IMG/VR virus record: IMGVR_UViG_3300046504_000195
Location: 1-54,933 of that record
Origin: a virus
Direction: 5' to 3' (one strand)
DNA length: 54,933 nucleotides
Part shown: in pieces, positions 21,339 through 49,258 of the stretch
Numbering within the stretch: the first letter of the stretch is position 1
Layout: the number at the start of each line of letters is the position of its first letter
Notes under the pieces: generated by a model
Told to the model about the DNA's origin: nothing
The model's input: the letters and a program-made list of their open reading frames with translations, nothing else
The model's database searches: none
Position numbers and translations under genes: made by a program

Positions 21339-21413
21339 ATGATGAAAAATTTCTTACATATCCAGCCCCAACCACAACATCCGCAAGATGCTGAATGGGA
21401 AAGATATGCTTGA
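21339..21413 (+). CDS. Leader peptide rich in Gln/Pro/His
   Basis: 24 codons, starting 33 nt after the promoter. Residues 7-16 read HIQPQPQHPQ, nine of ten being His, Gln or Pro. The tRNAs immediately downstream decode Pro (x3), His (x2) and Gln (x3) and nothing else. A ribosome short of any of these charged tRNAs would stall here. The segment GAATGGG (21393-21399) near the end of the ORF is complementary to CCCATTC in the terminator 5' arm. A second ATG at 21342 could be the start. Too short for homology calls; its meaning comes from composition and context. Confidence 0.8.
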   Translation: MMKNFLHIQPQPQHPQDAEWERYA

Positions 21414-21479
21414 AACTTTCATCGAAGTTGGAAAGAATTAAGTTAAACATGAACCCCATTCGCAAGAGTGGGGTTTTTT
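21393..21479 (+). terminator. Attenuator of tRNA cluster 1
   Basis: Terminator AACCCCATTC-GCAA-GAGTGGGGTT (21452-21475) plus T run. Alternative: GAATGGG (21393-21399) pairs 7/7 with CCCATTC (21455-21461), which breaks the terminator. Upstream CATATC (21358-21363) can pair GATATG (21403-21408), a possible anti-antiterminator. Confidence 0.75.
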
Positions 21480-21494
21480 CGTTCTTTAATATAT

Positions 21495-21589
21495 CAGGGG
21501 TTGATCGAGTTGGTTGAAGATGCTGGTCTTGGAAGCCAGTGACGGCACAAAGGTAGTGTCGTCCGTGGGTTCGAACCCCACACCCCTGA
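21495..21589 (+). tRNA. tRNA-Pro(TGG), long variable arm
   Basis: Acceptor CAGGGGT/ACCCCTG, D stem ATC/GAT, anticodon loop CTTGGAA, T arm GTGGG/CCCAC. About 24 nt between anticodon and T stems, i.e. a class II variable arm, which Pro tRNAs normally lack. A regular Pro(TGG) is at 21839. The D arm resembles Ser tRNAs. Confidence 0.75.
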
Positions 21590-21595
21590 CAATAA

Positions 21596-21670
21596 CTGGG
21601 TGTTCCGCAGATGGCTATACGGGCGTGTTCCGGAGACACGTGTTCGCAGGTTCAAATCCTGCCATCCAGA
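21596..21670 (+). tRNA. tRNA-Pro(CGG), C33
   Basis: Acceptor CTGGGTG/CATCCAG, anticodon stem CGTGT/ACACG, loop TCCGGAG with anticodon CGG and C at position 33 instead of U. Short variable loop, TTCAAAT T loop. Confidence 0.8.
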
Positions 21671-21676
21671 CAACAT

Positions 21677-21749
21677 GGTGAAGGTAGTTCAATGGTAGAA
21701 TTCCAGATTGTGGTTCTGGTAGTTGCGGGTTCGAGTCCCGTCCTTCACC
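21677..21749 (+). tRNA. tRNA-His(GTG)
   Basis: Acceptor GTGAAGG/CCTTCAC preceded by the His-specific G-1 opposite C73; loop TTGTGGT. Confidence 0.9.
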
Positions 21750-21838
21750 CCAAAATATCGTCAGAAAATACGATAATTTGAAAATATCGTGTGTAGATAG
21801 CATAAACAGTATTTATGCATTAAAAGCACGATAAATTT

Positions 21839-21914
21839 CGGGATGTGGTGTAGTTGGTAACATGCGTGCTTTGGGAGCATGAGACCGTGGGTTCGAGTCC
21901 CGCCATCCCGACCA
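21839..21914 (+). tRNA. tRNA-Pro(TGG)
   Basis: Acceptor CGGGATG/CATCCCG, loop TTTGGGA, short variable loop, encoded CCA. Regular Pro tRNA. Confidence 0.93.
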
Positions 21915-21917
21915 TAT

Positions 21918-21993
21918 GGTGATTGTAGAGGAATTGGTAGACTCTCCTGACTGTGAATCAGGAATCTTGCGGGTTCGAGTCCCGTCTTTCACC
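21918..21993 (+). tRNA. tRNA-His(GTG), weakened acceptor
   Basis: G-1, loop CTGTGAA on stem CCTGA/TCAGG, C73. Acceptor GTGATTG/CTTTCAC has two T-T mismatches, so this second His copy may be decaying or poorly processed. Confidence 0.7.
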
Positions 21994-22007
21994 CAAATAT
22001 TGACGTT

Positions 22008-22148
22008 ATGAGAAAAGGTAACAAACAAAATGCTTTCCTTAATGGCGAATGGGCAGCACACATGCGTAAATGGGGTAAATTTTTCACCGCCAAGGCACGT
22101 AGAACTGTCGATAAAAAAGTTATCAGGGAAGAACTTAAAAATGCATGA
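22008..22148 (+). CDS. Small basic protein inside tRNA cluster 1
   Basis: 46 aa (MRKGNKQNAFLNGEWAAHMR...), strongly basic, between tRNA-His and tRNA-Gln and therefore under the same attenuated promoter. No family recognised. Basic composition fits RNA binding, but that is a guess. Confidence 0.55.
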   Translation: MRKGNKQNAFLNGEWAAHMRKWGKFFTAKARRTVDKKVIREELKNA

Positions 22149-22192
22149 TAAAATAATGTGATATTTTAAATTATCACGCATTTAAGTGATAT

Positions 22193-22265
22193 TGTCTTAT
22201 GGTGTAATTGGCAACACGTTTGACTCTGAATCAAAAGAGTGGGGGTTCGAAACCCTCTAAGACAA
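22193..22265 (+). tRNA. tRNA-Gln(CTG)
   Basis: Acceptor TGTCTTA/TAAGACA, loop CTCTGAA on TTTGA/TCAAA, short variable loop. Confidence 0.88.
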
Positions 22266-22316
22266 CAATAGATTTTTTGCAATAAGTACTGAAAAACGGT
22301 CCTTTGCGCAAAATAT

Positions 22317-22399
22317 TGCCCTCTGGCAGAATGGTTATTGCATCGGTCTTTGAAGCCGACACTCATCAGGGTTTGTGGGTTCGAGTCCCACGGGGGCGA
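22317..22399 (+). tRNA. tRNA-Gln(TTG), long variable arm
   Basis: Acceptor TGCCCTC/GGGGGCG (two wobbles), D stem GCA/TGC, loop CTTTGAA, 15-nt variable arm. Class II shape with a Gln anticodon; the regular Gln(TTG) follows at 22415. Confidence 0.75.
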
Positions 22400-22414
22400 C
22401 AATGAAATTTATAT

Positions 22415-22488
22415 TGTCCTTTGGTGTAATTGGTTAACACATCTGATTTTGATTCAGGCGAGTGTAGGTTCGAGTCCTACAAGGACAA
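22415..22488 (+). tRNA. tRNA-Gln(TTG)
   Basis: Acceptor TGTCCTT/AAGGACA, loop TTTTGAT, short variable loop. Regular copy. Confidence 0.92.
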
Positions 22489-23175
22489 CTAATTTATAAT
22501 TTTGATTCTTTGAGGATCAAAAACCATTCTAACTGTTGATTTGGTCACACCACCTTGATAACTATCAAGAACTCCAAGTACATCTACAATATCATAACCC
22601 AATTGTTGTGCAATTACTGCCAGATCATCTGTTGTAAGTTTAGTTCCATTTCCGGTGATTGTATCTTGAAACATTTGTAAATATTTATCAATTGTACCAT
22701 CATCAATACCATCATCATTCAATGCTTTTCTCACAGCATCAATACGAATTCCTCTGAATTTTTCACCATGCGCAGGAACTTGTAGTATTTTACCACTATC
22801 ATCTATATTGACTTTGATTGTGTTTGGAATTGATTCCTGATAATCAAATGCTCTTTTATCGTTTGCATATGTATTTGCAACACCATAATTGTCTGTAAAA
22901 AATATTGGTTTTTTAAACGGCATTCTACCATGCAGAGTTCCGGCATCTTTTAAAAGTTCAAAATATAATTTTTCGTCACCTGCTTCTCTTGCTTTCTGCA
23001 TTCCTGCCTGCAATTCGTTCCATTTTTGAGGATCAGTAATATAAGTTGCAGTACTGGTCCTTGGAACAAAATTACCTGCCTTTTTAACATCTCTGATATC
23101 AGGAGTACCATGATACCAAACCTTGTTTTGGACCACTTCAGCAATTACCTCATTTATAATATTGACAATATTCAT
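22489..23175 (-). CDS. ADP-ribosyltransferase-like protein with tag-like N-terminus
   Basis: 229 aa from MNIVNIINEVIAEVVQNK; a longer frame to 23253 is rejected because the late motif (23179-23188) lies inside it. After the amphipathic N-terminus comes VWYHGTPD, then FFTDNYGVANTYAND and the end LGYDIVDVLGVLDSYQGG...VFDPQRIKII, the spacing of ART-fold phage toxins (ART-PolyVal type). The catalytic Glu is not certain. By analogy with T4 Alt it may be injected with DNA and modify host proteins such as RNA polymerase; that is inference. Confidence 0.6.
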   Translation of the reverse strand: MNIVNIINEVIAEVVQNKVWYHGTPDIRDVKKAGNFVPRTSTATYITDPQKWNELQAGMQKAREAGDEKLYFELLKDAGTLHGRMPFKKPIFFTDNYGVANTYANDKRAFDYQESIPNTIKVNIDDSGKILQVPAHGEKFRGIRIDAVRKALNDDGIDDGTIDKYLQMFQDTITGNGTKLTTDDLAVIAQQLGYDIVDVLGVLDSYQGGVTKSTVRMVFDPQRIKIIN

Positions 23176-27096: not shown

Positions 27097-27126
27097 TTTG
27101 GAATTAAGAAAACTTTATTATCTTTG
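27097..27126 (+). promoter_or_regulatory. Host-type promoter of tRNA cluster 2
   Basis: TTTG (27097-27100), 18 nt, TATCTTTG (27119-27126). The flanks are similar to the cluster 5 promoter, including TATCTTTGCC and GTATTTAAT just after. Confidence 0.75.
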
Positions 27127-27170
27127 CCGAGTATTTAATTGAAAGAAACAACGAATTTAATAACAAAACA

Positions 27171-27263
27171 ATGAAAAGGTTATTCGACATATTGGTAGCA
27201 GTCCTCATGGTGGATGTCCTATTATGGGCAGCCGAAGAGGATAAGTTATGCACTGTCGGGTAA
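27171..27263 (+). CDS. Leader peptide rich in Leu/Val/Ala/Asp/Glu/Trp
   Basis: 30 codons. Residues 6-24 (DILVAVLMVDVLLWAAEED) contain 17 of 19 residues from Asp, Leu, Val, Ala, Trp and Glu. The tRNA cluster behind it decodes Asp, Glu, Val, Leu, Ala and Trp. The last codons, GTC GGG TAA, form the antiterminator strand GTCGGGT (27255-27261), exactly complementary to ACCCGAC in the terminator. A ribosome reaching the stop codon would cover this strand and let the terminator form. Confidence 0.8.
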   Translation: MKRLFDILVAVLMVDVLLWAAEEDKLCTVG

Positions 27264-27332
27264 TACTTGAATATTACACTCCTTTCTTTTACAAGAAAAA
27301 AACCCGACTACTCATAACAGTCGGGTTTTTTT
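27255..27332 (+). terminator. Attenuator of tRNA cluster 2
   Basis: Terminator AACCCGACT (27301-27309)/AGTCGGGTT (27319-27327) with a T run. Competing pair: GTCGGGT (27255-27261) with ACCCGAC (27302-27308), 7/7. Confidence 0.75.
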
Positions 27333-27371
27333 ATGCAAGAAAGGAGAGGTTCTTTGACATGTTGGAAATTT

Positions 27372-27443
27372 CGAGGTCGTAGTTTAATGGTTAGAATATC
27401 GCACTGTCTATGCGAGGAAGGGGTTCGAATCCCACGGCTTCGG
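27372..27443 (+). tRNA. tRNA-Asp(GTC)
   Basis: Acceptor CGAGGTC/GGCTTCG, loop CTGTCTA on TCGCA/TGCGA, G73 as expected for Asp. The T stem has two mismatches at its base. Confidence 0.85.
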
Positions 27444-27513
27444 CATACTTGTTTATTTGATATTTATTTATTATTTTTGTCGAACACTAAGTATTTATAT
27501 TTAAATGACAGAC

Positions 27514-28155
27514 ATGAATAAAATAATATTGGAAAAAACAATAAAAGAATCTATATCATTTTCTGACGTATCGAGAAAGATATATGGAAATAATTTATGT
27601 GGTAATAGACAAACAATAAAAAAATATGTGAAACAATATAATATAGATATTTCACATTTCATTCAAATACCGCAAAAACATAATTTTCGTTCTAAAAGAG
27701 AACTTTCCGAAATATTGGTGGAGCATTCGATTTTTGATACAACAAATTTAAAAAATCGTTTATATTATGAAGGATTAAAAAAACGAATTTGTGAAAAATG
27801 TGGACAAGACGAAAATTGGCACGGTGAACACATAAGTTTAATTCTTGATCATATTAATGGTATAAATGATGATTTAAGAATAGAAAATTTAAGAATACTT
27901 TGTCCTAATTGTAACGCAACATTACCCACACATGGTGGCAAAAACGTAAAGCATAAATCAAAAGAAAAAATAAATAAACTTAGAAATTCTCAAAAAGTAT
28001 CTATGTCTCAACGAAAAGTAATGCGTCCACCACATGAACAACTTCAAAACGAAATAAATGAATTAGGATTTACAGGAACTGGAAAAAAATATGGTGTAAG
28101 TGATAATGCAATAAGAAAATGGATTAAATTTTATAATAAACATACACTCTCGTAG
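27514..28155 (+). CDS. HNH endonuclease
   Basis: 213 aa from the second Met; the first ATG (27505) is only 5 nt from the late-type motif AGTATTTATA (27490-27499), so MNKIILEK is preferred. Zinc site CEKCG...CPNC and HNH core LILDHINGINDDLRIENLRILC. The C-terminal RKKYGVSD-type helix-turn-helix (TGTGKKYGVSDNAIRKWIKF) likely binds DNA. The stop lies inside the following tRNA-like gene. Freestanding homing-type nucleases often spread among phages and sit by their target. Confidence 0.88.
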   Translation: MNKIILEKTIKESISFSDVSRKIYGNNLCGNRQTIKKYVKQYNIDISHFIQIPQKHNFRSKRELSEILVEHSIFDTTNLKNRLYYEGLKKRICEKCGQDENWHGEHISLILDHINGINDDLRIENLRILCPNCNATLPTHGGKNVKHKSKEKINKLRNSQKVSMSQRKVMRPPHEQLQNEINELGFTGTGKKYGVSDNAIRKWIKFYNKHTLS

Positions 28156-28221
28156 GCTTCTTGGTGAAGAACTTGGCTGTCACCCATGTAAAACAGACGG
28201 ATCGTAACCGTTCGGGAGTGC
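28145..28221 (+). tRNA. Degenerate tRNA-Asp(GTC)-like gene
   Basis: Terminal stem CACTCTCG/CGGGAGTG; CTTGG-CTGTCAC-CCATG fits an Asp anticodon arm with one mismatch; T arm GACGG-ATCGTAA-CCGTT has T54 and A58 swapped relative to consensus. D arm irregular. Overlaps the HNH stop. Possibly a pseudogene or a modified second Asp copy. Confidence 0.4.
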
Positions 28222-28227
28222 AAAAAT

Positions 28228-28299
28228 GCTCGGTTCTTCTAATGGTCCGGAAAGTAGACTCTCAATCTACGAATAGCAGTTCGATTCTGCTACCGAGTA
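28228..28299 (+). tRNA. tRNA-Glu(CTC)
   Basis: Acceptor GCTCGGT/ACCGAGT, loop CTCTCAA on GTAGA/TCTAC, T arm AGCAG/CTGCT. Confidence 0.88.
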
Positions 28300-28307
28300 C
28301 AAAAAAT

Positions 28308-28390
28308 GCTGCGTTATACAAGTCCGGTTAAAGTAGGCAGACCTTCAAACTGTCCCGAAAGGTTCGTGGGTTCGAATCCCACACGCAGTA
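28308..28390 (+). tRNA. tRNA-Glu(TTC), long variable arm, C33
   Basis: Acceptor GCTGCGT/ACGCAGT, D stem TAC/GTA, loop CCTTCAA (C33) with a 31-39 A-A mismatch, 12-nt variable arm CCCGAAAGGTTC. Second Glu(TTC) at 28496 is class I. Confidence 0.65.
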
Positions 28391-28396
28391 CAAAAT

Positions 28397-28493
28397 GAAT
28401 CGAAACAACGGCAAGGTACAGCCAAGAGTACAGGATGGTAATGCTTGAAGATATACGAAAACCGCCTTCAAGTTCGAGTGTTTCGATTCACCA
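28397..28493 (+). ncRNA. tRNA-like RNA with 11-bp terminal stem and CCA
   Basis: GAATCGAAACA pairs 11/11 with TGTTTCGATTC, followed by ACCA. Inside are GGC/GCC around a D-like loop and a 7-bp hairpin CTTGAAG/CTTCAAG; no standard anticodon or T arm. Lies exactly between two Glu tRNAs. Confidence 0.45.
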
Positions 28494-28495
28494 AT

Positions 28496-28567
28496 GCTCG
28501 GTTCGTATAAAGGTTAGTACCTAAGACCTTCAATCTTAGTATACGGGTTCGACTCCCGTACCGAGTA
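28496..28567 (+). tRNA. tRNA-Glu(TTC), C33
   Basis: Acceptor GCTCGGT/ACCGAGT, loop CCTTCAA on TAAGA/TCTTA, short variable loop, T arm ACGGG/CCCGT. C at position 33. Confidence 0.82.
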
Positions 28568-28576
28568 CAAAAAATG

Positions 28577-28607
28577 TTGCTTTTATTAATCATTATCGTT
28601 ATATTTG
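28577..28607 (+). promoter_or_regulatory. Host-type promoter
   Basis: TTG (28577-28579), 20 nt, TATATTTG (28600-28607), 30 nt before the ATG of the RmlD-like gene. Confidence 0.6.
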
Positions 28608-28637
28608 CCCAATAATGATTATTAAATCCATCAAATT

Positions 28638-29321
28638 ATGAAAATACTTATTTTAGGTGACGGACTATTGGGATCAGAAATAGTCAAACAAATGGGTTGG
28701 GATTATCTCTCAGTCAACAAAGACGGAATTGATGTCTTAAATGATTTTGGCGGATTTGTGAGTAAGGTATATGAATTTCATCCAACAGTAATAATAAATT
28801 GCATTGGATATACAAAGACATACGATACTGAAAGGCAACATCATTGGGATTTAAACTATGGATTTGTAGTAAAACTTGTAGATATGTGCAATGATTTCGG
28901 ATATAAATTAGTGCATATTTCAACAGATTACATTTACGCCAATAGTAAAAATAAAAAATCTGAAAAAGATATTCCTGTTCATCAGGAAACTTGGTACTCA
29001 TATTGCAAATTAATTTCAGATGCATACGTGCAATTAAAAGCAAGAGATTATCTGATGTTCAGATGTTCATTTAAACCTAAACCCTTTCCATATGAAAAAG
29101 CATTTGTAAATATCATGGGAAATTTTGATTATGTCGATGTTTTGGCAAAACAAATGATTGCCTTAATTATTGAAGAAAGAACAGGCGTTTGGAATATCGG
29201 TACAGAATTTAAATCAGTATATGAATTGGCAATTCAAACACGACAAGTAGTAGATTTTTCTTATTCAAATCAATTGCCAATCATTGAAATGGACCTCAGT
29301 AAATTCAATAATAGAGTATGA
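28638..29321 (+). CDS. RmlD-like NAD(P)-dependent reductase
   Basis: 227 aa, short for dTDP-4-dehydrorhamnose reductases (~290). MKILILGDGLLGSEIV is the Rossmann GxxGxxG-type start (GDGLLGS), HISTDYIYA and YSYCK give the Ser/Thr and YxxxK catalytic pair. It may reduce a nucleotide sugar for glycosylation of phage or host surface; the missing C-terminal part leaves the substrate open. It has its own promoter inside tRNA cluster 2 and overlaps the next HNH gene by 4 nt (ATGA). Confidence 0.7.
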   Translation: MKILILGDGLLGSEIVKQMGWDYLSVNKDGIDVLNDFGGFVSKVYEFHPTVIINCIGYTKTYDTERQHHWDLNYGFVVKLVDMCNDFGYKLVHISTDYIYANSKNKKSEKDIPVHQETWYSYCKLISDAYVQLKARDYLMFRCSFKPKPFPYEKAFVNIMGNFDYVDVLAKQMIALIIEERTGVWNIGTEFKSVYELAIQTRQVVDFSYSNQLPIIEMDLSKFNNRV

Positions 29322-29728
29322 GAGAAATTAAACGAAGAAGAAACTGTAAAAATTGTGATAAAAAATTAATTAGAACCGACAACATTTATTGTAATATCGG
29401 ATGCTATCAGGAATATCAATTTAAAAACAAATATCTTCCATTATTTTATCTTGGAGAAATAAGAGAAAATAAAACATTAAGAAAAATACTTATATATCTC
29501 TATGGTAATAAATGTTCTGAGTGCCCTTGTGAGTCTATTTGGAATGGAAAGCCATTAGTTATGCAAGTAGATCATAAGGATGGCAATTCCGATAATAACA
29601 TGCCAGAAAATGTAAGATTGCTCTGTCCCAATTGTCACACTCAAACTCCAACGTTTTGTGCTGGTGACAATAAACAAACAAGAAGAAATAAATATCTTAG
29701 AAAATATAAAAATAGTATGCTCCTTTAG
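29318..29728 (+). CDS. HNH endonuclease
   Basis: 136 aa. N-terminal zinc knuckle CKNCDKK...CNIGC, then CSECPC and HNH core MQVDHKDGNSDNNMPENVRLLCPNC. Translationally coupled to the reductase. Its last codons and stop are inside tRNA-Val at 29719, the same arrangement as the other HNH genes here. Confidence 0.85.
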   Translation: MREIKRRRNCKNCDKKLIRTDNIYCNIGCYQEYQFKNKYLPLFYLGEIRENKTLRKILIYLYGNKCSECPCESIWNGKPLVMQVDHKDGNSDNNMPENVRLLCPNCHTQTPTFCAGDNKQTRRNKYLRKYKNSMLL

Positions 29729-29796
29729 TTCAGTTGGTTCAGAATATCTGCCTTACAAGCAGAGGGTCATTGGTTCGAATCCAATAGGGAGCACCA
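29719..29796 (+). tRNA. tRNA-Val(TAC)
   Basis: Acceptor GCTCCTT/AGGGAGC, loop CTTACAA on TCTGC/GCAGA, short variable loop, encoded CCA. Confidence 0.93.
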
Positions 29797-29800
29797 AAAT

Positions 29801-29886
29801 GGGAAGATAGTGTAACTGGATAAACATCCCACTCCTACAAAGTGGAGACGAGAAGTATAATCAGGGTTCGAGTCCCTGTCATCCCA
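29801..29886 (+). tRNA. tRNA-Val(TAC), long variable arm, C33
   Basis: Acceptor GGGAAGA/TCATCCC (one mismatch), anticodon stem CCACT/AGTGG, loop CCTACAA, ~16-nt variable arm. Opposite class and C33 relative to the Val copy just upstream. Confidence 0.72.
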
Positions 29887-29890
29887 CAAT

Positions 29891-29966
29891 GGGTCGTAAG
29901 TTGTGTTGGTTAATTGCCAAATCGGTGTTATAACCGATAAAACGCCAATATCGGCTCTACGACCTA
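29891..29966 (+). ncRNA. tRNA-like RNA without normal T arm
   Basis: Acceptor-like GGGTCGT/ACGACCT, strong hairpin ATCGGT-GTTATA-ACCGAT where the anticodon arm should be, and only GCC-AATATC-GGC in place of the T arm. Could be a divergent tRNA with a TAT or TTA loop, or a decoy. Confidence 0.4.
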
Positions 29967-29974
29967 TAATTTAA

Positions 29975-30056
29975 CCTCAAGTGGTGGAATTGGTAGACAC
30001 GTGCGTTTAAGAGGCGCATGCCGAAAGGTTTGCGAGTTCGATTCTCGCCTTGAGGA
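29975..30056 (+). tRNA. tRNA-Leu, anticodon AAG (or TAA)
   Basis: Class II Leu body, acceptor CCTCAAG/CTTGAGG, variable arm TGCCGAAAGGTTT. With the best stem TGCGT/GCGCA the loop is TTAAGAG, anticodon AAG; shifting by one to read TAA creates a G-G closing mismatch. Confidence 0.8.
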
Positions 30057-30061
30057 CAATT

Positions 30062-30145
30062 GCGGATGTGGCTAATAGAGAATGGCAGATCGTCCTGGCT
30101 TAGAACCAGGAAACCTTGTAGGTTCGAGTCCTATCATCCGCACCA
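30062..30145 (+). tRNA. tRNA-Leu(TAG), short variable loop
   Basis: Acceptor GCGGATG/CATCCGC, loop CTTAGAA on CCTGG/CCAGG, variable loop only ~7 nt, D region enlarged to ~23 nt, encoded CCA. A class I Leu is unusual. Confidence 0.75.
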
Positions 30146-30146
30146 T

Positions 30147-30221
30147 GTGGACATGCCGGAACTGGTATACGGGTTGGTCTCAGACACCAATTTTTTGTGG
30201 GTTCGACTCCCATTGTCCACA
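30147..30221 (+). tRNA. tRNA-Leu(CAG), short variable loop
   Basis: Acceptor GTGGACA/TGTCCAC, D stem CCG/CGG, loop CTCAGAC on TTGGT/ACCAA, variable loop TTTTTT. Class I Leu. Confidence 0.8.
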
Positions 30222-30359
30222 CAAAGGTGAATGTTGTTACTTTTTGCAGGAGTAGCACCACCTGTGCCGAATAACTTGTAGAGGGAGAAGTAGTACTTTC
30301 AAATACATCATGTATCTGCAACATCTGATGATGGTTGAGTTATTAAAAAGGCACACCAC
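30222..30359 (+). other. Spacer in tRNA cluster 2 with possible structured RNA
   Basis: No ORF of note. ATGTTG (30230) can pair CAACAT (30320) around several smaller stems. I could not fold it into a tRNA. Confidence 0.3.
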
Positions 30360-30433
30360 GGGGTCGTGGCATAATTGGCTATTGCACCTGCCTTGCACGC
30401 AGGGGACTGAGGGTTCGAGTCCCTTCGACTCCA
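30360..30433 (+). tRNA. tRNA-Ala(TGC)
   Basis: Acceptor GGGGTCG/CGACTCC, loop CTTGCAC on CCTGC/GCAGG, regular. Confidence 0.92.
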
Positions 30434-30513
30434 CAAAAAATACTCCATATGGTTTGAAAGTCCATTCAAGGGTATCAGTTATAATATTCACTGACTGCTA
30501 TCTGGGAGAACAC

Positions 30514-30586
30514 GGGGCAGTGGTGACAAAGGCTAACACGGCAGACCTGCAATCTGTAGATGAGGGTTCGATTCCCTTCTGCTCCA
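30514..30586 (+). tRNA. tRNA-Ala(TGC), C33
   Basis: Acceptor GGGGCAG/CTGCTCC, D stem GTG/CAC, loop CCTGCAA on GCAGA/TCTGT, short variable loop. Same anticodon as 30360 but C33. Confidence 0.8.
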
Positions 30587-30670
30587 CGAGAATTTGGTTT
30601 TGGTTATTTCCGTCAACCTTGCAATAAGAACGTCAAAAACTACGGTATAAATTCTTTCCAAATTCATCAT

Positions 30671-30744
30671 GGCACTGTACTCCAATCGGCAGAGGGGACA
30701 GACTTAAAACCTGTAAAGTGTGGGTTCGAATCCCACCAGTGCTA
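30671..30744 (+). tRNA. tRNA-Leu(TAA), short variable loop
   Basis: Acceptor GGCACTG/CAGTGCT, D stem CTC/GAG, loop CTTAAAA with an A-C mismatch at 31-39, variable loop AAAGT. The class II partner is at 33599. Confidence 0.75.
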
Positions 30745-30752
30745 CAAAATAT

Positions 30753-30835
30753 ACGTCAGTGACCGAGTGGCTGAAGGTGATGGTCTCCAAAACCATTTGC
30801 GAAAGCACACGTGGGTTCGAATCCTACCTGGCGTG
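30753..30835 (+). tRNA. tRNA-Trp(CCA), long variable arm
   Basis: Acceptor ACGTCAG/CTGGCGT, D arm ACC/GGT with GAGTGGCTGAA as in Ser tRNAs, loop CTCCAAA on ATGGT/ACCAT, ~14-nt variable arm, G73 (fits Trp). Trp in the leader peptide supports the Trp assignment. Confidence 0.78.
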
Positions 30836-30840
30836 CAAAA

Positions 30841-33209: not shown

Positions 33210-33561
33210 GGGGATGACTTGGTTTTGACAGCAGGATCGAGTAGTATTGTAAGCAAGTAGTAGTTGAATCAGACTACTTAAAAAAGGTTCAAAACAACAA
33301 ACGCAGAAGACATAATGTCTATTCCAACTTCTCTCACGAGAGGTAAAGCAGTTTTTGCAAGAAATACTGAACTTGCATTAGCAGCATAGGAAACAGCAAA
33401 AATCAGTAAAGAACCTTCCAACTTGAGGAAGTAATAATCAAGACGACTTGTAATTGTGTCGATGTACAATTAATATTTTGTTGGTTAAGAAAAACCAAAT
33501 AAACTTGTAGAAATCATATTAGTCACTTGACTGGACCGGGGTTCGACACCCCGCATCTCCA
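33210..33561 (+). ncRNA. ssrA: tmRNA (ssrA)
   Basis: 352 nt. tRNA-like ends: GGGGATG at the 5' end pairs CATCTCC at the 3' end, T arm CGGGG-TTCGACA-CCCCG, and GACTTGGTTTTGACAGC is the conserved 5' segment. The tag frame ends ELALAA then TAG (33387-33389), keeping the C-terminal ALAA degron typical of host tags (Bacteroidota usually ...NYALAA). The frame is open back to GCA at 33303 (28 codons); the resume codon is not certain and a shorter tag is possible. It would rescue stalled ribosomes and mark products for ClpXP during infection. Confidence 0.9.
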
Positions 33562-33598
33562 CAAATTACTTAAATATTAAGTAGTTATTTGAAAATTT

Positions 33599-38297: not shown

Positions 38298-39407
38298 ATG
38301 GAATTATTATTAAAAGTTGATTGGAATGTTTTAAACGATTACATCGACAACAACCTTATCGTAGCAAACAAGCACCCAGAATATGATATCTGGATTCTTA
38401 ACTATTCTCCAAAGACTCAGGCAAAGAAATTTTGGGATGCATATACTATGTCATGTCGTGGACTTGTTGTTGATGCAGAAGGAAATATCCTTGCACGTCC
38501 ATTTCAGAAATTTAAGAACTATGAAGAACATGATCCATCAGAAATTGATATGTCACAAGCATTCGAAATCTATGAAAAAATGGATGGTTCACTTATCATA
38601 TTGTTTTACTATGAACCACGTATGGAATGGATAATTGCATCAAGAGGTTCTTTCATTTCAGAACAAATGATAGAAGCACAAAAATTATTTAATGCCGCAG
38701 TATATGATGCATTGAGTGTGCATTTGACATATCTGTTTGAAATTATATATCCAGAAAACCGTATTGTAGTTGATTATGGTAATAGAAAAGAACTCGTATT
38801 ACTTGCTGTGATCGAAACCGCAAGTGGTTTTGAAGTACAATACGAAAAAGTATTTGCCACGTATTCAAAATACTTTACTGTTGTTAAGCAATATAAAATC
38901 AAGAATATCAAAGACCTTAACGACTTGAAGAAACTTGAAGAAGACAACCGAGAAGGTTTTGTGGTAAAATTTCCGGATAAAAGGGTTAAAGTTAAGTTCA
39001 GTGAATATGTCAGATTACATGGTATCTTAACAAATGTTTCAAACTTAACTGTTTGGGAACACTTGATGAATAACTATGATTTTGATGCATTACTTGACAG
39101 AGTTCCAGATGAATTTTATACATGGTTACAAAATGTGGTTGCTAAATTACAATCAGGTTTTAATGACATCGAAAGAGAATCATTGAAAGAATTCACGAGA
39201 ATTTCACACATTAATGAAATTATTGGACGTAAAGAGTTTGCTGCAGAAGCAATAAAATCTCCATATCGTGCAATCTTATTCAAGATGTGTGATAAGAAAC
39301 CATACAGTGATTTGATTTGGAAAATGATCAAACCAACGTTCAGTAAACCATTCAAGGATGGTCATGAAATTACTGATTCGGATTACTTTGAACAAAAAGT
39401 AAATTAA
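38298..39407 (+). CDS. RNA ligase 1 (T4 Rnl1-like)
   Basis: 369 aa, the length of T4 Rnl1. Nucleotidyl motif I EKMDGSL with adenylated Lys94, preceded by SCRGLVVDAEGNILARPFQKF as in Rnl1, motif IIIa NRIVVDYG, motif IV EGFVVKF, motif V KVKF. The C-terminal ~110 residues correspond to the Rnl1 tRNA-specificity domain. Rnl1 reseals tRNAs cut in the anticodon loop by host PrrC. Interesting beside many tRNA genes and a cREC gene. No polynucleotide kinase/phosphatase is visible in the window. Confidence 0.9.
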   Translation: MELLLKVDWNVLNDYIDNNLIVANKHPEYDIWILNYSPKTQAKKFWDAYTMSCRGLVVDAEGNILARPFQKFKNYEEHDPSEIDMSQAFEIYEKMDGSLIILFYYEPRMEWIIASRGSFISEQMIEAQKLFNAAVYDALSVHLTYLFEIIYPENRIVVDYGNRKELVLLAVIETASGFEVQYEKVFATYSKYFTVVKQYKIKNIKDLNDLKKLEEDNREGFVVKFPDKRVKVKFSEYVRLHGILTNVSNLTVWEHLMNNYDFDALLDRVPDEFYTWLQNVVAKLQSGFNDIERESLKEFTRISHINEIIGRKEFAAEAIKSPYRAILFKMCDKKPYSDLIWKMIKPTFSKPFKDGHEITDSDYFEQKVN

Positions 39408-40873: not shown

Positions 40874-40966
40874 ATGATTACATTTGGAACATATTATTTC
40901 GGTAAAAAATCTTATAAAAAGTACTTTATAAGAATCGGGAAATTTATGTCCATTTGTGAAAAATAA
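40874..40966 (+). CDS. Leader peptide rich in Lys/Tyr
   Basis: 30 codons. Residues 7-17 read YYFGKKSYKKY, eight of eleven Lys or Tyr; the downstream cluster decodes Lys (x3) and Tyr (x2). The Lys/Tyr codons themselves form a 9-bp hairpin TCTTATAAA/TTTATAAGA that abuts GAATCGGG (40932-40939), which is 8/8 complementary to CCCGATTC in the terminator. A stalled ribosome in the hairpin would free GAATCGGG to act as antiterminator. Confidence 0.8.
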   Translation: MITFGTYYFGKKSYKKYFIRIGKFMSICEK

Positions 40967-41029
40967 GCAATAATTTTACAGACAATGGATTCTAAGCAAA
41001 CCCGATTCAAATGAGTCGGGTTTTTTATT
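40932..41029 (+). terminator. Attenuator of tRNA cluster 4
   Basis: Terminator AAACCCGATTC (40998-41008)/GAGTCGGGTTT (41013-41023), loop AAAT, T run. Competing pair GAATCGGG (40932-40939) with CCCGATTC (41001-41008). Between them TCCATTTGT/ACAATGGA can form a further hairpin. Confidence 0.75.
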
Positions 41030-41164: not shown

Positions 41165-41236
41165 GTGCTCGTAGCAAAGTTGGTTTAGCCTCGGACTTTT
41201 AATCCGAAGACGTGGGTTCGAGTCCCACCGGGCACA
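41165..41236 (+). tRNA. tRNA-Lys(TTT)
   Basis: Acceptor GTGCTCG/CGGGCAC, loop CTTTTAA on TCGGA/TCCGA, regular. Confidence 0.93.
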
Positions 41237-41306
41237 CATGACAGGGTAGAACATTTTAGGATTTTTCGATGAACTGAGTAAAGGTATTCATGAGAAAAAT
41301 TCATTT

Positions 41307-41378
41307 GCACTCGTAGCAAAGAGGCAATGCTACTGCCCTTTAAGCAGACGAACGTGGGTTCGACTCCCACCGAGTGCA
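41307..41378 (+). tRNA. tRNA-Lys(TTT), C33
   Basis: Acceptor GCACTCG/CGAGTGC, D stem GCA/TGC, stem CTGC/GCAG, loop CCTTTAA: Lys anticodon with C at 33, the base 5' of the site PrrC-type nucleases cut. Confidence 0.82.
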
Positions 41379-41417
41379 CAATAAATTTGGTGATGGCATT
41401 AATGTCGTGAGCAAATA

Positions 41418-41535
41418 AGTGAGAATGTGGCTGAACGGAAAGTGCAGACTGAATTGGTACACTGCTTGGGTTTACAACCTTAACAAGCAGAAGAGGTCTG
41501 ATAAGTAAGCAGGTTCGAGTCCTGCCATCCTCACA
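41418..41535 (+). tRNA. tRNA-like gene with enlarged anticodon loop
   Basis: Acceptor GTGAGAATG/CATCCTCAC (8 of 9), D arm GCT/AGT, anticodon stem CAGAC/GTCTG, normal T arm GCAGG-TTCGAGT-CCTGC. The anticodon loop is 46 nt instead of 7 and holds a hairpin CTGCTTG...CAAGCAG with TTTACAA at its tip. Either an unusual intron/insertion or a non-tRNA product. Confidence 0.5.
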
Positions 41536-41539
41536 AATT

Positions 41540-41608
41540 GGGATTGATTCTTTGGAGAAACCGGGTCTGTAAAACCCCACATAGTAGGTTCGATGCCTAC
41601 CAGTCCCA
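41540..41608 (+). tRNA. tRNA-Tyr(GTA), short variable loop
   Basis: Acceptor GGGATTG/CAGTCCC, loop CTGTAAA on GGGT/ACCC, variable loop ACATA, small D arm. Class I Tyr is atypical for bacteria; class II copy at 41939. Confidence 0.75.
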
Positions 41609-41614
41609 CAAAAT

Positions 41615-41686
41615 GAATCTGTGGCAGAATGGCTATGCTCTTGACTCTTAATCAAGATGATGAGGGTTCGACTCCCTTCGGGTTCA
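41615..41686 (+). tRNA. tRNA-Lys(CTT)
   Basis: Acceptor GAATCTG/CGGGTTC, loop CTCTTAA on CTTGA/TCAAG, short variable loop. Confidence 0.88.
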
Positions 41687-41700
41687 CTAAAATTATGATT

Positions 41701-41937
41701 ATGGAAAATATTACGACAATCGTAAAAGGAACAAATGCAAGTTTAAGCCATGTATGTAATGGCAAAGCATGCTATAAAATTATGACAGCAAATCATTCAT
41801 ATCAACTTGAAATAAATTTGATGGATGCTGAATGGAAGGATGTTTATGTATTTCCAGAATACAAGGCAATAACTTTGATGCGTTGGATCAGGAAAGGCAT
41901 TGAAAGTCAAGATGATTCATTCATAATGTTGAAATAA
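41701..41937 (+). CDS. Small unknown protein inside tRNA cluster 4
   Basis: 78 aa from MENITTIVKG (ATG at 41695 is an alternative); the frame upstream runs through tRNA-Lys and is not coding. Ends at the first base of tRNA-Tyr. No family recognised. Co-transcribed with Lys/Tyr tRNAs. Confidence 0.6.
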   Translation: MENITTIVKGTNASLSHVCNGKACYKIMTANHSYQLEINLMDAEWKDVYVFPEYKAITLMRWIRKGIESQDDSFIMLK

Positions 41938-41938
41938 T

Positions 41939-42019
41939 GAGTAGGTGGGTGAGTGGTTAAAACCGCCTGACTGTAGATCAGGTCCTTCGGGTTCGGGGGT
42001 TCGAATCCCTCTCTGCTCA
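41939..42019 (+). tRNA. tRNA-Tyr(GTA)
   Basis: Acceptor GAGTAGG/TCTGCTC, loop CTGTAGA on CCTGA/TCAGG, class II arm TCCTTCGGGTTC. Regular bacterial Tyr. Confidence 0.92.
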
Positions 42020-42020
42020 C

Positions 42021-48754: not shown

Positions 48755-48886
48755 ATGAAAACGTACAGGCACATATCAGCAATCATTACATCGACCTCAA
48801 GTCGCAACGGGATATCTATATTCTGTTCAGACTTTACAGGCAGAAATAATGGAATTGATACGGGTTATGGTTTTCTTATGAGATAA
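48755..48886 (+). CDS. Leader peptide rich in Ile/Ser/Thr/Asn/Gly/Phe/Cys
   Basis: 43 codons. Residues 7-34 contain 24 of 28 residues from Ile, Ser, Thr, Asn, Gly, Phe and Cys, and there are four Arg overall. The downstream tRNAs decode Thr, Cys, Asn, Ile, Phe, Ser and Gly, and further on Arg. GATACGGGTT (48857-48866) is 9/10 complementary to AACCCGAATC of the terminator. Same arrangement as leaders 1, 2 and 4, with the widest amino-acid set. Confidence 0.78.
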   Translation: MKTYRHISAIITSTSSRNGISIFCSDFTGRNNGIDTGYGFLMR

Positions 48887-48938
48887 ACTTAAAAGTTTTA
48901 GTAAACCAAAAACCCGAATCGCAAGTTTCGGGTTTTTT
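48857..48938 (+). terminator. Attenuator of tRNA cluster 5
   Basis: Terminator AACCCGAATC (48911-48920)-GCAA-GTTTCGGGTT (48925-48934) and T run. Competing strand GATACGGGTT at 48857-48866. Confidence 0.72.
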
Positions 48939-48956: not shown

Positions 48957-49027
48957 GCCGAGATAGTCCAAAGGTAGAACTTCTGTGTGGTATTCAGAGG
49001 ATACGAGTTCGAGTCTCGTTCTTGGCT
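48957..49027 (+). tRNA. tRNA-Thr(GGT)
   Basis: Acceptor GCCGAGA/TCTTGGC, loop GTGGTAT on TCTGT/TCAGA with a T-T pair at 31-39, T arm ACGAG/CTCGT, T73. Confidence 0.78.
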
Positions 49028-49171
49028 CAAATAAAATAAGGTTATAACCTTATATCTTATGAATATAAGATTATTGCCTTAATAAAATATAACTCTTACA
49101 GGTTATAAACACAATTAATAACCCAAGCAGGTTATTATCTGTAAGACGATCTTTGACATGCTGGTAATTTT

Positions 49172-49256
49172 GTCGGGATGCCTGAGTGGTTGAAGGGGAC
49201 GGTCTGCAAAACCGTTTGCTACGCACGCATGGGTTCGAATCCCATTCCCGACTCCA
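49172..49256 (+). tRNA. tRNA-Cys(GCA), long variable arm
   Basis: Acceptor GTCGGGA/TCCCGAC, Ser-like D arm CCT/GGG, loop CTGCAAA on ACGGT/ACCGT, 13-nt variable arm. T73 is the main Cys identity base, so Cys is likely despite the class II shape. Encoded CCA. Confidence 0.82.
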
Positions 49257-49258
49257 AT

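What the first reader, a model, noticed from the sequence alone, without database searches (positions are those of the whole stretch)
27097..27332. Leader 2: DILVAVLMVDVLLWAAEED before Asp/Glu/Val/Leu/Ala/Trp tRNAs
17 of 19 core residues match the six amino acids of the cluster, including a single Trp with a single recognisable tRNA-Trp. The antiterminator GTCGGGT is formed by the last codons and stop and pairs 7/7 with ACCCGAC (27302-27308).
Basis: partly seen in the sequence, partly recalled or inferred. Interest (0 to 1): 0.9.

Follow-up and report, generated by a model that had tools for sequence, protein, structure and literature searches.

The report
Viral tRNA genes with translation-sensing switches
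A giant virus of bacteria places, before each block of its own tRNA genes, a tiny decoy gene spelled in exactly the amino acids those tRNAs carry, followed by an on/off RNA hairpin, so the tRNAs are probably made only when the ribosome runs short of them; the same device turns up in the largest phages known and I found no earlier report of it.

Summary
A 30-codon ORF (27171-27263), 20 of whose 29 residues after the start are D/E/V/L/A/W, lies between a Bacteroidota-type promoter and an intrinsic terminator that precedes Asp-Glu-Val-Leu-Ala-Leu-Trp tRNAs. Its last codons (GTCGGGT) can pair with the terminator's 5' arm. The other leaders serve {P,H,Q}, {K,Y} and {T,C,N,I,S,F,G,R}.
Relatives: about two dozen T4-like jumbo-phage records carry the same leaders. 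Composition-blind pairing of leader to own block is the best permutation in 21/21 genomes. When tRNA-Trp moved to another block (G024), Trp left leader 2 and entered leader 4. The antiterminator covaries. Sensor codons end about 13 nt before it, the reach of a stalled ribosome.
Leaders with wholly different groupings occur in the 735-, 642- and 636-kb huge phages (for example QQQQQQQ before four Gln tRNAs) and in Prevotella phage Lak-A1.
Best reading: trp-type ribosome-mediated transcription attenuation controlling viral tRNA operons, giving tRNA supply on demand. The mechanism is inferred from sequence; no RNA or expression data exist. One exception: G009 keeps Trp in leader 2 without a recognisable tRNA-Trp.

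The parts
27098..27126 (+). Bacteroidota-type promoter TTG-N18-TATCTTTG
   Evidence: TTG-N18-22-TAnnTTTG present within 150 nt upstream in 62 of 70 leaders, versus 4.1% of random windows
27171..27263 (+). leader 2 ORF, MKRLFDILVAVLMVDVLLWAAEEDKLCTVG*
   Evidence: homologues in 16 related phages
27179..27189 (+). protector strand (region 1), GTTATTCGACA, pairs with 27254-27264
   Evidence: part of the minimum-energy fold; 11 of 17 class-2 leaders p<0.05, with different but complementary sequences in G011 and G024
27186..27242 (+). sensor codons D6 to D24; Trp codon at 27225-27227
   Evidence: 17 of 19 residues D/E/V/L/A/W
27255..27261 (+). antiterminator strand GTCGGGT (region 2)
   Evidence: pairs 7/7 with 27302-27308; 91.9% of cells paired in 17 homologues, 5 pairs with two-sided changes, 0/500 shuffles
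27279..27288 (+). conserved CTCCTTTCTT, resembles the 16S rRNA 3' tail; role unknown
   Evidence: 10 occurrences in 889 kb, all in class-2 leaders
27299..27332 (+). intrinsic terminator (5' arm ACCCGAC 27302-27308, 3' arm GTCGGGT 27320-27326, T run to 27332)
   Evidence: covariation
27349..27367 (+). boxA-like GTTCTTTGACATGTTGGAA between terminator and first tRNA
   Evidence: longer motif in 13/17 class-2 and 8/20 class-4 leaders, versus 0.5% of random windows
27372..30836 (+). tRNA block 2: Asp, Asp, Glu, (Glu), Glu, Val, Val, Leu, Leu, Leu, Ala, Ala, Leu, Trp, with an HNH-type ORF 27505-28155 and other ORFs between
21339..21476 (+). leader 1 (MKNFLHIQPQPQHPQDAEWERYA) and terminator, before Pro/His/Gln tRNAs 21495-22489
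40874..41023 (+). leader 3 (MITFGTYYFGKKSYKKYFIRIGKFMSICEK) and terminator, before Lys/Tyr tRNAs 41165-42020
48755..48936 (+). leader 4 (MKTYRHISAIITSTSSRNGISIFCSDFTGRNNGIDTGYGFLMR) and terminator, before Thr/Cys/Ile/Ser/Phe/Gly/Asn/Arg tRNAs 48957-54748

Best explanation
Each tRNA block is an operon controlled by ribosome-mediated transcription attenuation. A host ribosome translates the short leader behind RNA polymerase. If every tRNA named by the leader is charged and plentiful, the ribosome reaches the stop codon, the antiterminator strand is covered or re-sequestered by the protector strand, the terminator hairpin forms and transcription ends before the tRNA genes. If any sensed tRNA is short, the ribosome stalls on its codon upstream, the antiterminator strand pairs with the terminator's 5' arm, the terminator cannot form and polymerase reads on into the tRNA genes, probably helped by a boxA element. 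The block's tRNAs then relieve the stall, giving negative feedback. One leader acts as an OR gate for six amino acids here, and four leaders together cover 19 of 20. Shown from sequence: the anatomy, leader-to-block matching, alternative pairings with covariation, and sensor-codon spacing. Inferred: the stalling, polarity, feedback and physiological trigger.
For: Four leaders in the window with the same layout. Composition-blind assignment of leader to own block is the best permutation in 21/21 related genomes, and in LR756504 (1 of 720), LR756501 (1 of 120) and LR756502 (1 of 5040). Enrichment only in the ORF frame for class 2 (mean z 3.2 against -1.1 to -2.4 in the other five frames). Trp moves between leaders together with tRNA-Trp in G024. 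Antiterminator and terminator both covary. Sensor codons are 92-100% at 13-18 nt upstream of the antiterminator but 5-50% at 1-6 nt in all four classes, and 87% falling to 21% in the huge phages, as expected if a ribosome stalled on the last sensor codon just fails to cover it. Strong promoters directly upstream. Protector helix in class 2.
Against: No experimental data; the hosts are uncultured. G009 has Trp in leader 2 without a recognisable tRNA-Trp. G026's leader has five Asn with no Asn tRNA found nearby. G015 has lost leader 3. In class 3 the antiterminator lies about 35 nt before the stop, so a ribosome at the stop would not cover it, and the protector is not significant in most class 1, 3 and 4 leaders. 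Some huge-phage leaders show only weak antiterminators.
Confidence: 0.88

Rival explanations
1. Same attenuator, but the signal that matters in nature is not amino-acid starvation: it is loss of host tRNAs during infection (host anticodon nucleases or general tRNA decay), so phage tRNAs are deployed as counter-defence on demand.
For: A T4 Rnl1-like RNA ligase gene lies in the same region in the window and in 22 of 32 related records. Phage tRNAs are reported to counter host tRNA-cleaving defences (PMC10264068, PMC11555353). Four modules cover nearly all amino acids, which suits general depletion.
Against: Sequence cannot separate uncharged from missing tRNA. G011 and G015 have leaders but no such ligase was found in their records.
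Confidence: 0.45
2. The leader peptides are functional small proteins, and the match to tRNA identities is incidental.
For: Leaders of one class are recognisably homologous between phages.
Against: Residues exchange within the sensed set. The same logic recurs with unrelated peptides such as QQQQQQQ, LSLCLSLSLSL and SKHSKHFSSSSK in huge phages. The swap tests have no explanation here.
Confidence: 0.02
3. The terminators merely end transcription from upstream and the ORFs are chance.
For: Short ORFs and terminators are common in AT-rich phage DNA.
Against: A promoter lies between the upstream gene and the leader in 62 of 70 cases; leader-to-block matching and covariation.
Confidence: 0.01
4. 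The leader is a switch of a different kind, for example polarity reversed or control by Rho/boxA rather than by the antiterminator helix.
For: boxA-like elements follow the terminator in most class 2 and many class 4 leaders. In class 3 the antiterminator is far from the stop.
Against: The antiterminator helix covaries, and the sensor codons stop at one ribosome reach upstream of it, which fits stall-induced read-through.
Confidence: 0.08

Closest known systems
Ribosome-mediated transcription attenuators of amino-acid operons (trpL, hisL, pheL, thrL, ilvGMEDA leader)
   Same: Short translated leader rich in regulatory codons, mutually exclusive antiterminator and intrinsic terminator, protector helix (class 2)
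   Different: Controls tRNA genes instead of biosynthetic genes; carried by phages; one leader reads up to eight amino acids; several parallel modules cover nearly the whole code
pheST attenuator (leader peptide controlling phenylalanyl-tRNA synthetase in E. coli)
   Same: Leader peptide attenuation of a translation-machinery gene
   Different: There the synthetase is controlled by one amino acid; here the tRNA genes themselves by many
T-box riboswitches
   Same: Sense the charging state of a tRNA and decide termination versus read-through
   Different: T-boxes bind tRNA directly and need no translation; no T-box family was hit in the window
Phage tRNA arrays of jumbo phages (Al-Shayeb et al. 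2020, PMC7162821)
   Same: Large tRNA sets in huge phages; that paper describes genomes of 735, 642 and 636 kb, the sizes of the records examined here
   Different: The paper's main text has no mention of attenuation or leader peptides

Membership tests
Leader-peptide (trp/his-type) transcription attenuator | Short ORF between promoter and regulated genes | tested here: met
Leader-peptide (trp/his-type) transcription attenuator | ORF enriched in codons of the amino acids relevant to the regulated genes | tested here: met
Leader-peptide (trp/his-type) transcription attenuator | Intrinsic terminator between ORF and first regulated gene | tested here: met
Leader-peptide (trp/his-type) transcription attenuator | Antiterminator exclusive with terminator, conserved by covariation | tested here: met
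Leader-peptide (trp/his-type) transcription attenuator | Protector (1:2) helix sequestering the antiterminator when the leader is not occupied | tested here: inconclusive
   clear in class 2 (11/17 with p<0.05, distinct complementary versions in G011 and G024), not in the other classes
Leader-peptide (trp/his-type) transcription attenuator | Ribosome stalling on leader codons changes read-through in vivo | not testable with these tools
   needs expression data; the sensor-codon spacing is only indirect support
T-box riboswitch | T-box/specifier structure matching the Rfam family | tested here: not met
   only tRNA and tmRNA families hit

The most novel reading that the evidence does not exclude
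Huge phages, including the largest known, run their own tRNA supply under closed-loop control: the genetic code is split into several modules, each sensed by a multi-codon leader and topped up by its tRNAs when host tRNAs are starved or destroyed by anti-phage defences.
Probability: 0.6. Interest if true: 0.96.

Novelty: new variant of a known kind. Interest (0 to 1): 0.93.

Why it matters
Why large phages carry dozens of tRNAs is an old question. A translation-sensing switch in front of each tRNA block says that the tRNAs are a reserve used on demand, not a constant codon-usage supplement, and it names which tRNAs the phage expects to run short together. It would be the first attenuation-type control of tRNA genes and the first in viruses that I know of. 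It extends multi-amino-acid attenuation from three amino acids (ilv) to about eight, and it gives ready-made sensors for tRNA depletion that can be tested on reporters. The leaders can also predict which tRNA genes in a block have been missed or miscalled.

Tried and rejected
T-box or other known RNA families: none hit apart from tRNA and tmRNA. Chance ORF: rejected by the swap and frame tests. My first swap test used leaders chosen partly by composition; it was repeated composition-blind. Codon census (each leader samples more synonymous codons than expected): only a mild excess, mean z 0.9-1.8, not relied on. Pairing of CTCCTTTCTT with a purine run after the terminator: present in the window, not conserved, left unexplained. 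Search for relatives of LR756504 through two of its tRNA-synthetase genes found only a fragment of the same phage. No leaders by my scan in LR756508, LR756511 or Flavobacterium phage immuto, nor in distant relatives G016, G025, G028, G030, G032 (some regions only partly read). Bacterial host genomes were not scanned for similar leaders before their own tRNA genes. Literature searches found no report; the library holds only open-licence papers, so subscription-journal work could be missed.

Full report
WHAT IS THERE. The window is a 54,933-base fragment of a virus record with a T4-like portal and terminase, and its closest isolated terminase relatives are only about 27% identical. It carries 46 ARAGORN-predicted tRNA/tmRNA genes, all on the + strand and in blocks. 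The finding's ORF at 27171-27263 reads MKRLFDILVAVLMVDVLLWAAEEDKLCTVG*. It follows a Bacteroidota-type promoter and precedes a terminator at 27299-27332 and the block Asp2, Glu2-3, Val2, Leu4, Ala2, Trp1. GTCGGGT (27255-27261) complements ACCCGAC (27302-27308) 7/7.

It is not alone. Leader 1 (...HIQPQPQHPQ...) precedes Pro/His/Gln; leader 3 (...YYFGKKSYKKY...) precedes Lys/Tyr; leader 4 (...ISAIITSTSSRNGISIFCSDFTGRNNGIDTG...) precedes Thr, Cys, Ile, Ser, Phe, Gly, Asn, Arg. The four sensed sets are disjoint and cover 19 amino acids.

STATISTICS. In the window, 20 of 29 residues of leader 2 are in its set against 33.9% expected (p=1.2e-4). Relatives found through a neighbouring VWA-domain protein and read piece by piece show the same four leaders in the same order. 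Choosing leaders without looking at composition (longest ATG ORF ending 15-45 nt before the terminator ahead of a tRNA block), the true assignment of leaders to blocks is the best of all permutations in 21 of 21 genomes. The genomes are related, so the nominal 1e-21 overstates the case. The independent cases below do not depend on that kinship.

NATURAL EXPERIMENTS. (a) G024 (371 kb): tRNA-Trp lies in block 4, not block 2. Its leader 2 (...LSLETLAMEASTTMAVALVEDD...) has no Trp but has extra Met, matching three Met(CAT) tRNAs in block 2; its leader 4 (...SNINRSNWCGNITTSGIITLSFRGSNN...) has gained Trp. (b) LR756504.1 (636 kb): LSLCLSLSLSL before Leu/Ser/Cys; IAIVEIAVIGGAEEG before Glu/Ala/Ile/Val/Gly; IIRMRIIR before Arg/Ile/Met; KKKK before Lys; identity is rank 1 of 720. 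(c) LR756501.1 (735 kb): YNDYCIND before Ile/Cys/Asp/Asn/Tyr; SKHSKHFSSSSKWF before Trp/His/Phe/Lys/Ser; MIQEQMQQIQ before Met/Gln/Ile/Glu; rank 1 of 120. (d) LR756502.1 (642 kb): QQQQQQQ before four Gln; SSRSRSS before Arg/Ser; NLNMNLNTLTVVNNTL before Asn/Leu/Val/Thr; rank 1 of 5040. (e) Prevotella phage Lak-A1: HPVCGMVHMFPCGGGRPM before His/Pro/Arg/Gly/Cys/Met. In a few of these several ORFs preceded one terminator and the matching one was used.

THE TRP TEST. Sixteen of 17 leader-2 homologues carry Trp. Thirteen of those blocks have an ARAGORN tRNA-Trp; G022 and G011 have divergent or miscalled ones; G009 has none found. G024 lacks both Trp codon and tRNA-Trp in unit 2. One discordant case in 17.

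RNA LOGIC. On an alignment of 17 class-2 leaders, the antiterminator helix pairs in 91.9% of cells, with two-sided changes at five of eight positions (no shuffle of 500 reached the score, and slid registers give 25-49% paired). The terminator helix covaries too. G017 (GTCGAGA/TCTCGAC) and G011 (ATGCTGG/CCAGCAT) change the strands together. Without ribosomes the window leader folds with its first codons (27179-27189) pairing the antiterminator. This protector helix is supported in class 2, with different complementary strands in G011 and G024, but not generally in classes 1, 3 and 4. In a fold of the region left exposed by a ribosome stalled at the Trp codon, with the transcript ending at the 5' arm, the antiterminator forms (-11.5 kcal/mol); with a ribosome at the stop, the terminator forms.

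THE FOOTPRINT RULE. Measured from the first base of a codon to the antiterminator start, codons at 13-18 nt are sensor codons in 92-100% of cases in all four classes, and at 1-6 nt in only 5-50% (backgrounds 9-42%). In the huge phages the values are 87% and 21%. This is the reach of a ribosome downstream of its A site (about 12-15 nt, own knowledge): any stall on a sensor codon leaves the antiterminator free. I regard this as the strongest sign that stalling ribosomes are the sensor.

SURROUNDINGS. Promoters of the type TTG-N18-22-TAnnTTTG precede 62 of 70 leaders (4.1% of random windows), and a boxA-like GTTCTTTGACATGTTGGAA follows the terminator in most class-2 and many class-4 units, suggesting protection of untranslated tRNA transcripts from Rho (inference). 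A T4 Rnl1-like RNA ligase gene is nearby, hinting at a life among tRNA-cleaving defences.

VERDICT. Mechanistically it works like the trp/his attenuators. As a system (viral, acting on tRNA genes, many amino acids per leader, several modules per genome) I found no precedent in the searched literature. What is missing is any experiment.

Noticed in passing
window 27279-27288: CTCCTTTCTT between leader-2 stop and terminator is found 10 times in 889 kb, always in class-2 leaders; it resembles the 3' tail of Bacteroidota 16S rRNA (anti-Shine-Dalgarno). Role unknown.
   Followed up: partly
window 27337-27346: AAGAAAGGAG after the terminator can pair with 27279-27288, enclosing the terminator; not conserved in most relatives.
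   Followed up: partly
window 33210-33564: Phage-encoded tmRNA (tag AEDIMSIPTSLTRGKAVFARNTELALAA) with a boxA-like GTTCTTTAAAATATTGG just upstream; also in many relatives.
   Followed up: no
window 38298-39407: T4 Rnl1-like RNA ligase, conserved in 22 of 32 related records, usually in the same region; probable tRNA repair.
   Followed up: partly
window 27505-28155: HNH-type ORF inserted between the first two Asp tRNAs; similar ORFs interrupt tRNA blocks in relatives (homing endonucleases?).
   Followed up: no
L137 9420-10601 and L138 5523-6980 (reverse strand), LR756504: tRNA-synthetase-like genes lie close to the leader-controlled tRNA blocks of the 636-kb phage and may be under the same control.
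   Followed up: no
L088, L135, L142, L156, L164: tRNAs with CTA anticodon (called Pyl by ARAGORN), possible amber suppressors, in several huge phages.
   Followed up: no
L035 19543: A tRNA called Gly(tcc) by ARAGORN in G011 looks like the missing tRNA-Trp(CCA); leaders can help correct tRNA calls.
   Followed up: partly
L092 10425-10550 (G026): A single leader with A,E,L,S,C matches its block but also has five Asn codons with no Asn tRNA found.
   Followed up: partly
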